In this document: piece by piece, positions 20,586 through 26,696 of the stretch
Position numbering within the stretch: position 1 is the stretch's first letter
How the letters are laid out: each line of letters begins with the position of its first letter
Assembly (NCBI GenBank): GCA_016124675.1
Contig: WGNG01000014.1
Span: 62,001 to 126,000, forward strand
DNA: 64,000 bases
Origin: Alphaproteobacteria bacterium
Lineage (GTDB): Bacteria; Pseudomonadota; Alphaproteobacteria; Caulobacterales; Maricaulaceae
Reading direction: 5' to 3'
The notes under the pieces: model-generated
Databases searched by the model: none
Told to the model about the DNA's origin: nothing
Seen by the model: the letters and a program-made list of their open reading frames with translations, nothing else
Translations under genes and position numbers: made by a program

Positions 20586-21907
20586 GCGCTGGGCCTGACG
20601 CCGCCGGGACCGGAGCCGGTCCGTTCAGCGCCTTTGAATTCATGCTGGCGTTGCGCTATCTGCGCGCCCGGCGCCAGCAGGCCGGCGTGACGCTGGTGGC
20701 GATCATCTCCTTTGTCGGGATCATGCTGGCGGTGACCGCGCTGATCGCCGTCATGTCCATCATGAACGGCTTCCGCCACGAGCTGCTGACCCGGCTTCTG
20801 GGCGTGCAGCCCCATGTCTATGTCCAGCTGCCCCAGGATCTCAACAGCCAGACCAGCGATCTGGCTGACGCCATCGCGCAGCTGCCGGGCGTGCGCCAGG
20901 CCGGGCCGGTGACACTGGGCCAGGCGCTGGTGACATCGGCGCGCGGGCAGGCGGCGTTTGCGCAGGTCAATGGCGTGCGCGCCTCGGATTTCGTCAATTT
21001 CGACATCGTCACCGGCGCGGGCGGCGTGGCGGAGGCCGGCGGCGGGCTGGTGTCCGGCACGGCGGAGGGGTTTGGCGAGGGCCGCAATGGCGGCGACATC
21101 ATCGTCATCGGCTCGGCCATGGCGGCGCGTCTGGGCGTGTCGGCGGGCGATGACGTGACGCTGGTCACCCCGCGCGGCGCGCAGACCGCGCTGGGCGTGG
21201 CGCCGCGCTCGAAAACCTATCTCGTCGGCGCGGTGCTGACCGTGGGGGTGCAGGACCTTGATTCCATCCTCGTCTACATGCCCATCGAGCAGGCGGCGCT
21301 GTTCTTCAACCGGTCGGCGGCGGGCGATTACATCGATGTGCGCCTCACCAATCCCGACGCGCCCGAACCGGTGATCGCGCGCATCAACGCCATCGCGCCG
21401 CCGGGCGCGCTGGTGTTCGACTGGCGCGTGGAGAACGCCGCCTTCTGGAACGCGCTGCAGGTGGAGCGCATCGCCATGCGGCTCATCCTGTCCATCATCG
21501 TGGCCATTGCGGCGCTCAACATCATCTCCGGCGTGGTCATGCTGGTGAAGAACAAGACGCGCGACATCGCCATCCTGCGCACCATGGGCGCCACGCGCGG
21601 CGCGGTGATGCGCATCTTCCTGATCGCCGGGGCCACGATCGGCTCGTTCGGCACGCTGTGCGGCATCGTGCTGGGCCTGTTGTTCGTGGCGTTCATCGGC
21701 CCGATCCAGGACGGCATTGCGCTGATGACGGGTGTGAACATCTTCGACCCCACCGTCTACAAGCTCTACCGCCTGCCCGCGCGCGTGGACTGGACCGAAG
21801 TGGTGTTCGTGTCGGCCTGGGGCTTCGCCATGGCGCTCCTGGCCACACTCTTGCCCAGCTGGCGGGCCGGGCGGATCGATCCGGTGGAGGCGCTGCGCAA
21901 TGAGTGA
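20582..21907 (+). CDS. Lipoprotein-releasing ABC transporter permease (LolC/LolE family)
   Basis: 441 residues. The inner-membrane permease of the Lol system, which releases outer-membrane lipoproteins to LolA. One N-terminal helix follows [20 protein letters not shown], then a large periplasmic domain (about 55-275) and three C-terminal helices ([25 protein letters not shown] is the cytoplasmic coupling segment). Alphaproteobacteria usually have one LolC/E-like protein. Ends eight bases inside lolD. Confidence 0.93.
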
Positions 21908-22592
21908 GCCGGTCTTATCCATCCGCGCCCTGACGCGCGTCTATGACAGCGGCGCCGAGCGCCTGGAAGTCCTGTCAGGCGCCGATCTCGACCTCTATCC
22001 CGGCGAGCTGGTCGGGCTGGTCGGGCCGTCCGGCTCGGGCAAGTCCTCGCTCCTGCACGCCGCCGCCCTGCTGGAGACGCCCACCTCGGGTCAGGTCTTT
22101 ATCGCCGGGCTGGACGGGCTCGCCTTGCCGGAACGCGCCCGCACGGCCCTGCGGCGGCGCGAGATCGGCTTTGTGTACCAGTTCCACCACCTCCTGCCGG
22201 AACTCGACGCGCTGGAGAATGTCGCCCTGCCGCTGCGCATTGCAGGCAGGGGGGCAGGTCCCGCGAAGGCGGCGGCGCGCATGCGTCTGGAGACTCTGGG
22301 CCTTGGCGGGCGGCTCACCCACCGGCCCGGCCAGCTGTCCGGCGGCGAGCAACAGCGGGTGGCGATCGCCCGCGCGCTGGTCAACAATCCGCGCGTGGTG
22401 CTGGCCGACGAACCCACGGGCAATCTCGACCCCGCCCACTCCGACCAGGTCTTCGACGCCCTCGCCGCCGCCTGCCGCGAAGCGGGCGCTGCGGCGCTGA
22501 TCGCCACCCACAACCTCGCCCTCGCCGCGCGCATGGACCGGGTGGTGACGGTGGAGCAGGGGCGGCTGAGGTCCTGGGTGGCGCAGGGGTGA
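21900..22592 (+). CDS. lolD: Lipoprotein-releasing ABC transporter ATP-binding protein
   Basis: 230 residues. Walker A GPSGSGKSS (42-50), Q-loop region VYQFHHLLPEL, signature LSGGEQQRVAIARAL, Walker B VVLADEPTGNLD and switch His in ATHN. It energises lipoprotein release together with the overlapping permease. The proS-lolCE-lolD order is common in alphaproteobacteria. Confidence 0.95.
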   Translation: MSEPVLSIRALTRVYDSGAERLEVLSGADLDLYPGELVGLVGPSGSGKSSLLHAAALLETPTSGQVFIAGLDGLALPERARTALRRREIGFVYQFHHLLPELDALENVALPLRIAGRGAGPAKAAARMRLETLGLGGRLTHRPGQLSGGEQQRVAIARALVNNPRVVLADEPTGNLDPAHSDQVFDALAAACREAGAAALIATHNLALAARMDRVVTVEQGRLRSWVAQG

Positions 22593-23000
22593 GGCTCGCG
22601 GTCTGACGGCTCGACGTCTGACCGTGCTCTCTCCCGTTCCTGGGGCCAGCGCATTTGACCGAAGCCGGCCGGTTCACGGGGCGCAAGGCGGCGGGGCTCA
22701 GGCCGCCGCCATGTCCGGGATGATCGCCATGCGGCCCCGTTTTCTCCTGGCTCCTTGCTGGGTCATTTTCGCAAGCGGCGCAGCCTGTCAGGGACGACCG
22801 AGCCAGGCTCGGTCGCCGCACGGCGGCGGCCTGAATGGCCGTCCTTGACAGACTGCGATCGCCTGGCGGCTTCCTCCAGCATGGAACGAGGGGGAGGGCT
22901 GATCCCCGGAATTCTCGCCGCGGCGCGTGCTCAGCCTGCACGCCAACCCACCGACTTTCCACAGCTTTGCGAATCATTTTGCCGTGGCCACGATTCGCGC
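22593..23000. other. Long intergenic stretch before the dnaE locus
   Basis: About 400 bases without a supported gene. It contains one copy of a structured dispersed repeat (22751-22914) and a GC-rich hairpin near 22690-22710. Reading frames through it are repeat-derived and are not called. Confidence 0.5.
22751..22914. repeat. Structured dispersed repeat, copy A
   Basis: About 164 bases matching 61541-61704 almost end to end, with a few substitutions and short indels. The core is bounded by inverted arms CTGTCAGGGACG (22785-22796) and CGTCCTTGACAG (22840-22851). These pair with one G-T wobble, where copy B has a perfect pair. Internal hairpins occur around GACCGAGCC/GGCTCGGTC. The 3' flank (ACTGCGATCGCC...CCAGCATGGA) is also conserved. 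Confidence 0.75.
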
Positions 23001-23050
23001 TTGACGGCGGGAACAAAAAGAGAAAATATGCAACGGAACAAAACAGGAAT
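23001..23050 (+). promoter_or_regulatory. Promoter with two LexA-box-like sites upstream of the 30-residue gene and dnaE
   Basis: TTGACG at 23001-23006 is a -35 candidate, with AAATAT (23024-23029) at 17-base spacing. Between and after them are two near matches to the alphaproteobacterial LexA box GAAC-N7-GAAC: GAAC-N7-GAAA at 23011-23025 and GAAC-N7-GAAT at 23036-23050, each with one mismatch. Their overlap with the promoter is what an SOS operator would look like. Pattern-based only. Confidence 0.4.
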
Positions 23051-23088
23051 TGCCGCAAAAGCGGCGTTGAACCAGAAGGATGCCTGCC

Positions 23089-23181
23089 ATGCGCCACGCC
23101 CTTGAAGATATCGCTTCGGCCGCCGTCATCGCCGGCTTCGTGACCCTCGCGCTCGCCGTATCAGCCGCCATGGCGGGCTGA
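23089..23181 (+). CDS. 30-residue single-span membrane peptide upstream of dnaE (SidA-like candidate)
   Basis: ATG at 23089 with AAGGA eight bases upstream. It encodes MRHALEDIASAAVIAGFV followed by a hydrophobic run ending AAMAG, 30 residues, one membrane helix with a short charged N-terminus. The next gene is dnaE, 66 bases on. Size, topology, position and the LexA-like upstream sites recall Caulobacter SidA, a 29-residue SOS-induced inhibitor of cell division that binds FtsW/FtsN. I see no sequence identity that proves this. A 25-codon ORF at 23028-23105 overlaps in another frame and is less likely. Confidence 0.5.
   Translation: MRHALEDIASAAVIAGFVTLALAVSAAMAG

Positions 23182-23246: not shown

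Positions 23247-26696
<3,450 letters not shown>

What the first reader, a model, noticed from the sequence alone, without database searches (positions are those of the whole stretch)
23001..23181. SOS-like 30-residue membrane peptide upstream of dnaE
A single-span peptide gene with a good ribosome-binding site sits 66 bases before dnaE. Its promoter overlaps two one-mismatch LexA boxes (GAAC-N7-GAAA, GAAC-N7-GAAT). Caulobacter SidA is a 29-residue SOS-induced division inhibitor; from memory its gene is also near dnaE, which must be checked. This could be a diverged checkpoint peptide and would also place dnaE under SOS influence.
Basis: partly seen in the sequence, partly recalled or inferred. 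Interest (0 to 1): 0.7.

Follow-up and report, generated by a model that had tools for sequence, protein, structure and literature searches.

The report
Diverged SOS division-checkpoint peptide before dnaE
A tiny membrane-peptide gene in front of the replicative DNA polymerase gene looks like a diverged form of Caulobacter's DNA-damage division brake SidA, and a similar peptide-plus-switch arrangement turns up before this polymerase gene in other Alphaproteobacteria.

Summary
Window 23089-23181 encodes a 30-residue single-span peptide with TTGACG and two LexA-like boxes (one mismatch each) upstream and dnaE 65 nt downstream. It is a real gene: 24 synonymous, 0 nonsynonymous changes against its three nearest relatives. 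The window peptide itself fails that model but sits at the same locus. Of 120 order loci that I picked, 95 have a 22-45 aa membrane ORF behind a LexA-type box before dnaE; mock spacings give 1-14. Profiles of the two clades align (hhalign 93.4%). Outside the order, 15 of 69 genomes have a forward perfect box before dnaE and 14 of these have such an ORF behind it, against 13 of 796 mock boxes. Best reading: a diverged sidA ortholog, LexA-repressed, probably co-transcribed with dnaE, blocking septal wall synthesis at FtsW. Induction, binding and division arrest are inferred. SOS control of Caulobacter dnaE is in print; the wide peptide-dnaE linkage I did not find in print.

The parts
23089..23181 (+). 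sidA-like gene, 30 aa single-span peptide MRHALEDIASAAVIAGFVTLALAVSAAMAG
23080..23082 (+). in-frame upstream ATG (33 aa form); less likely start: it abuts the ribosome-binding site and the 33 aa form is seen in 4 of the 13 genus loci with the peptide
23074..23079 (+). ribosome-binding site AGAAGG, 9 nt before ATG 23089
23001..23006 (+). -35-like element TTGACG, present at this place in 13 of 13 genus loci that have the peptide
23024..23029 (+). possible -10 element AAATAT, 17 nt after TTGACG; overlaps the right half of box 1 (inference; the consensus scan found no promoter)
23011..23025 (+). LexA-like box 1, GAAC-N7-GAAA, in the promoter spacer
23036..23050 (+). LexA-like box 2, GAAC-N7-GAAT, 25 bp after box 1, over the expected transcription start (inference)
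23051..23066 (+). short leader hairpin; arms differ between relatives but stay complementary (role unknown)
23247..26696 (+). dnaE, replicative DNA polymerase III alpha subunit, probable second gene of the transcript
21900..22592 (+). lolD-like ABC ATPase (TIGR02211, below its cut-off), upstream neighbour

Best explanation
This is a diverged ortholog of Caulobacter sidA. In undamaged cells LexA sits on two boxes, one in the promoter spacer and one over the transcription start, and represses the promoter. After damage, RecA-triggered LexA cleavage releases it and a 30-residue peptide is made that inserts in the inner membrane and, like SidA, holds the septal synthase FtsW/FtsI/FtsN inactive, delaying division. 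The same transcript probably runs on into dnaE, raising the replicative polymerase at the same time. Shown here: the gene, its selection, conserved boxes, locus conservation and profile match. Inferred: LexA binding, induction, topology, co-transcription, target and division arrest.
For: Purifying selection on the protein. Box pair and TTGACG kept in all 13 genus loci with the peptide; 8 versus 0/0 sites genome-wide for the refined pattern; the genome has its own lexA with GAACAGGCATAGAAC ending 44 nt before its start. NF033228 SidA places lie before dnaE; loci named Caulobacter, Phenylobacterium and Brevundimonas carry SidA-type peptides before dnaE. 95 of 120 order loci have box plus membrane ORF; with other spacings (N3-N6, N8-N12) the same joint test gives 1-14 of 120. 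hhalign f1 profile versus SidA-type profile 93.4%, E 2.5e-7 for the single comparison, 22 columns. Peptide-to-dnaE gaps of 11, 13 and 14 nt in three relatives; no terminator-like site in the window's 65-nt gap and an unremarkable fold. SidA biology: PMC4211646 (passages), PMC12700426 (passages).
Against: The curated SidA model finds nothing in the window peptide. Trp19, invariant in the 16 SidA-type peptides, is Thr in the window, and identity of the window peptide to the f1 peptides outside its genus is 17-47%. Both boxes are imperfect; plain GAAC-N7-GAAC is hardly enriched genome-wide (41 against 34), and of the six other sites of the refined pattern only one was tied to a likely SOS locus, 2.4 kb before a second, DnaE2-like gene. 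The consensus scan found no sigma-70 promoter. No expression or binding data. One genus genome (G003) lacks the peptide at this place; 17 of 26 f4 and 6 of 6 f2 loci lack box plus peptide.
Confidence: 0.78

Rival explanations
1. An SOS-induced membrane peptide of another action, for example TisB/DinQ-like depolarisation of the membrane (names recalled, apart from a listing of a DinQ paper) or a different membrane target, having drifted away from FtsW.
For: The window's genus lacks the tryptophans kept in most relatives and the sequence is a rather generic Ala-rich span; no test here reaches the target.
Against: Same locus, orientation, length and box type as SidA and a profile match that covers the N-terminal part as well as part of the span.
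Confidence: 0.13
2. A leader peptide whose translation regulates or couples to dnaE, with no role of the product itself.
For: Upstream of dnaE wherever it was found by the family profile (by eye); 11-14 nt away in three genomes.
Against: Residue-level conservation with free synonymous sites; gaps up to 312 nt in other genomes; Caulobacter SidA acts as a division inhibitor (PMC4211646, passages).
Confidence: 0.05
3. The boxes no longer bind LexA in this genus and the peptide is constitutive or under another regulator.
For: Each box has one mismatch; right halves GAAA and GAAT; little genome-wide excess of the plain pattern.
Against: Half-sites 96-100% alike against 54-60% in flanks; GAAT/GAAA forms also occur before SidA-type peptides, with or without a perfect neighbour.
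Confidence: 0.04

Closest known systems
SidA of Caulobacter crescentus (NCBIfam NF033228)
   Same: locus before dnaE, about 29-31 aa, one membrane span, LexA-type boxes upstream, profile-level similarity
   Different: not recognised by the curated model; lacks the tryptophan invariant in SidA-type peptides; two imperfect boxes 25 bp apart, where many SidA-type loci have a perfect one too
DidA of Caulobacter (SOS-independent, acts on FtsN; PMC4211646, passages)
   Same: small damage-induced membrane division inhibitor
   Different: DidA is induced independently of SOS and binds the SPOR domain of FtsN; no sequence comparison was made here
YneA, SosA, ChiZ of other bacteria (PMC13396833, passages)
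   Same: SOS or damage-induced small membrane inhibitors, proposed to act on FtsW
   Different: carry extracellular domains or extensions; no sequence relation tested; that paper's low-confidence models place SidA on the opposite side of FtsW TM7 from the others

Membership tests
SidA | score over the NF033228 cut-off (35 bits) | tested here: not met
   no match; so it is not filed as a member of that curated family. The model is narrow: it misses 8 of 40 f3 genomes too, 4 of which have a peptide at the locus (L084, L101, L102, L103)
SidA | gene lies directly before dnaE | tested here: met
   window; 32 of 33 NF033228 places likewise
SidA | about 29 aa, one hydrophobic span | tested here: met
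   30 aa, best 17-residue Kyte-Doolittle mean 2.41
SidA | LexA operator GTTC-N7-GTTC upstream | tested here: inconclusive
   two boxes with one mismatch each, conserved as a pair; no perfect box, and binding not testable
SidA | homology to Caulobacter-type peptides | tested here: met
   hhalign 93.4% over 22 columns; weak for a 30-residue span on its own, convincing only with the locus
SidA | induced by DNA damage through LexA | not testable with these tools
   needs expression and binding data
SidA | binds FtsW and blocks division | not testable with these tools
   needs bench work
DidA | SOS-independent induction, FtsN target | not tested
   considered only from PMC4211646 passages

The most novel reading that the evidence does not exclude
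A LexA-controlled operon of a SidA-like division brake and the replicative polymerase gene dnaE is an old feature of Alphaproteobacteria, present well beyond Caulobacteraceae (Maricaulaceae, Parvibaculum and Rhodobiaceae, Bradyrhizobium and Tardiphaga, Methylopila and others), with the peptide diverging so fast that the curated model sees it only in part of one family; damage would thus stop septation and raise replicative polymerase from one switch, and some lineages keep only the dnaE half.
Probability: 0.6. Interest if true: 0.7.

Novelty: new variant of a known kind. Interest (0 to 1): 0.55.

Why it matters
In the papers I saw, SidA is treated as a Caulobacter protein, and in the order sample the curated model stays inside one family. 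If its locus is a general alphaproteobacterial checkpoint, the question of how Rhizobiales and other relatives stop division after damage becomes directly testable with a list of candidate genes, and natural variation in the peptide can be set against FtsW to find the contact. It would also give a reason for LexA sites before dnaE: the first gene of the unit is a small peptide that is easily missed.

Tried and rejected
One search covered a wrongly guessed accession (NF007661 is not LexA); its result is not used. Pfam and NCBIfam give nothing for the window peptide even at E 10. No terminator-like site was found in the 65-nt gap to dnaE and its fold is unremarkable (z -0.01, which found one such site at 22746-22762 and one on the minus strand at 23065-23052). 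Only one place for the peptide was found in the own genome. The family profile A2 (27 f1 peptides, many from the genomes searched, so partly circular) finds 40 of 40 f1 genomes and one partial f2 place judged chance, but no peptide of f3, f4 or f5; homology between families rests on locus, boxes. The leader hairpin is modest: shuffles reach a sequence's own stem length in 12% of cases. In one search, 10 of 14 outside-order candidates are matched by at most 2 of 200 shuffles for at least one of three profiles (three tries each); L231, L235, L262 and L271 are not; L238 was left out as a near copy of L233.

Full report
What is there. The window holds a lolC/E-type permease, a lolD-type ATPase (below its curated cut-off), a 30-codon ORF and dnaE in one direction. 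The ORF (23089-23181) has a ribosome-binding site; in front of it stand TTGACG (23001-23006), a LexA-like box in the promoter spacer and a second one 25 bp on. The G002 contig of the same genus has 6,877 bases, the same length as the record 'Oceanicaulis sp. PL25a_bin.92', and both give the same peptide, so I take the window to be an Oceanicaulis-like member of Maricaulaceae (inference).

It is a gene. Window against its three nearest relatives: 24 synonymous, 0 nonsynonymous differences; over 78 pairs of 13 genus sequences pS is 0.54 and pN 0.19, and reading the other two frames reverses the ratio. The family profile finds the peptide in 40 of 40 sampled f1 genomes, once in each (partly circular, since it was built from 27 f1 peptides, many of them from these genomes).

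Boxes. GAACAWANNNNGAAH, written after seeing the boxes, occurs 8 times in the genome and 0 times reversed on either strand; two of the 8 are this pair. The plain GAAC-N7-GAAC is hardly enriched genome-wide (41 sites, 34 reversed). All 13 genus loci with the peptide fit one pattern with TTGACG and both GAAC halves; the script asked for these letters, but none of the 13 failed; 20-24 nt flanks agree in 54-60%. The genome has lexA, with a perfect box ending 44 nt before its start. In the 600 bases before dnaE of 120 order loci, GAAC-N7-GAAC occurs in 76, spacings N3-N6 and N8-N12 in 0-13, the opposite orientation in 5. The 120 loci are my choice, not a random draw: 30 (the window included), 80 from the listed places, then 10 more, among them f4 genera in which the peptide had been missing.

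It is at the sidA locus. The NCBIfam model for SidA, NF033228, hits 32 of 200 order genomes (25 over the cut-off), all in family f3 (32 of its 40), and of 14 controls only Caulobacter vibrioides. Comparing coordinates by eye, 32 of 33 places lie on the same strand within about 360 nt before dnaE; the exception is a second, below-cut-off place in G038. Loci named Caulobacter, Phenylobacterium and Brevundimonas carry such peptides before dnaE (two of them, L164 and L218, without a box of the types scanned). In the 120 order loci an ATG ORF of 22-45 aa with a membrane span and a box GAAC-N7-GAA[CAT] within 160 nt before it is found in 50 of 52 f1, 21 of 21 f3, 15 of 15 f5, 9 of 26 f4 and 0 of 6 f2, 95 in all. 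The same test with other spacings gives 1-14 of 120; such an ORF without asking for a box is found in 96 of 120, against 5 in the reversed sequences and 20 on the other strand. The window peptide scores nothing against NF033228, but the f1 profile aligns to the SidA-type profile with 93.4% probability over 22 columns and to the f5 profile with 86.1% (one row of that profile was not an exact translation).

dnaE. The stop of the peptide lies 11, 13 and 14 nt before the dnaE match in three relatives, and the window gap shows no terminator-like site. In five order loci without the peptide a box stands before dnaE: L029 at -54, L076 at -72, L079 at -80, L150 at -61, L083 at -131 (one search filed L150 as 'peptide, no box' because of an ORF that I read, by eye, as the end of an ABC ATPase). 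Outside the order five genomes have GTTC-N7-GTTC, the opposite orientation, at -54 to -80 and no forward box (L264, L266, L290, L292, L299). A 2012 paper (PMC3323433, sections 7 and 8 read) states that dnaE of C. crescentus had been reported as SOS regulated, citing work that is not held; so SOS control of dnaE is known there.

Beyond the order. Of 111 genomes outside the order with a dnaE match I examined 69 (29 loci and 40 fetched; the weaker dnaE matches were not fetched; one stretch has only 195 nt). 15 of 69 have a forward perfect box before dnaE (other spacings 0-4; opposite orientation 7, two of them beside a forward box). In 14 of the 15 an ATG ORF of 25-55 aa with a membrane span starts within 130 nt; the fifteenth (L238) has one with a GTG start. 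Mock boxes in the 54 genomes without a forward box give 13 of 796. Profile scores exceed shuffles clearly for 10 of 14 candidates. Named examples: Parvibaculum, Rhodobiaceae, Tepidicaulis, Bradyrhizobium, Tardiphaga, Methylopila, Alsobacter. The loci named as Rhodobacteraceae or roseobacters showed no box (two of them have under 200 nt upstream). So the arrangement is either ancestral and often lost, or spread; I built no tree.

Mechanism. SidA is a 29-residue inner-membrane protein that interacts with FtsW; mutations in ftsW and ftsI suppress it, and the favoured model is that it keeps the FtsW/FtsI/FtsN complex inactive (PMC4211646, passages). Caulobacter sidA is LexA controlled, early and strong compared with uvrA (PMC12700426, passages). 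By locus and anatomy I expect the same here. The right half of box 1 reads GAAA-ATAT where a -10 would be, which may be why its last base departs from the operator consensus (inference).

Literature. Seven searches of the open library showed, in their listings and in the passages I opened, no paper that places sidA before dnaE or describes SidA outside Caulobacter; the founding sidA and Caulobacter regulon papers are not held, so this is no proof of absence.

Verdict. It is a diverged variant of a known kind; the added result is how widely the peptide-box-dnaE arrangement is spread.

Noticed in passing
window 22750-22869: One copy of a palindromic repeat of about 120-170 bp; 44 matches at about 27 places (counted by eye) in the genome. 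Another copy lies about 180 bp before the LexA-type box of the second-DnaE locus on C23.
   Followed up: partly
window 23051-23066: Leader hairpin right after box 2; 10 distinct arm pairs in 13 genus sequences, all complementary with G-T pairs allowed; modest against shuffles one by one.
   Followed up: partly
L029, L076, L079, L083, L150 (dnaE upstream): Peptide absent but a LexA-type box kept 54-131 nt before dnaE, as if dnaE alone stayed in the regulon.
   Followed up: partly
L264, L266, L290, L292, L299 (dnaE upstream, outside the order): GTTC-N7-GTTC, the opposite orientation, at -54 to -80 in five genomes without a forward box: perhaps LexA sites of dnaE alone.
   Followed up: no
L183 (Bradyrhizobium), L215 (Tardiphaga), L155/L159 (Parvibaculum), L223 (Methylopila): Small membrane ORF behind a perfect LexA-type box before dnaE outside the order.
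   Followed up: partly
G000:C12:85158 (L126) and G000:C1:59619 (L123): LexA-type sites beside genes that look like DNA cytosine methyltransferases (by eye, no family search).
   Followed up: no
G038:C3:315102-315185: A second, weaker SidA-model match away from dnaE in one f3 genome.
   Followed up: no
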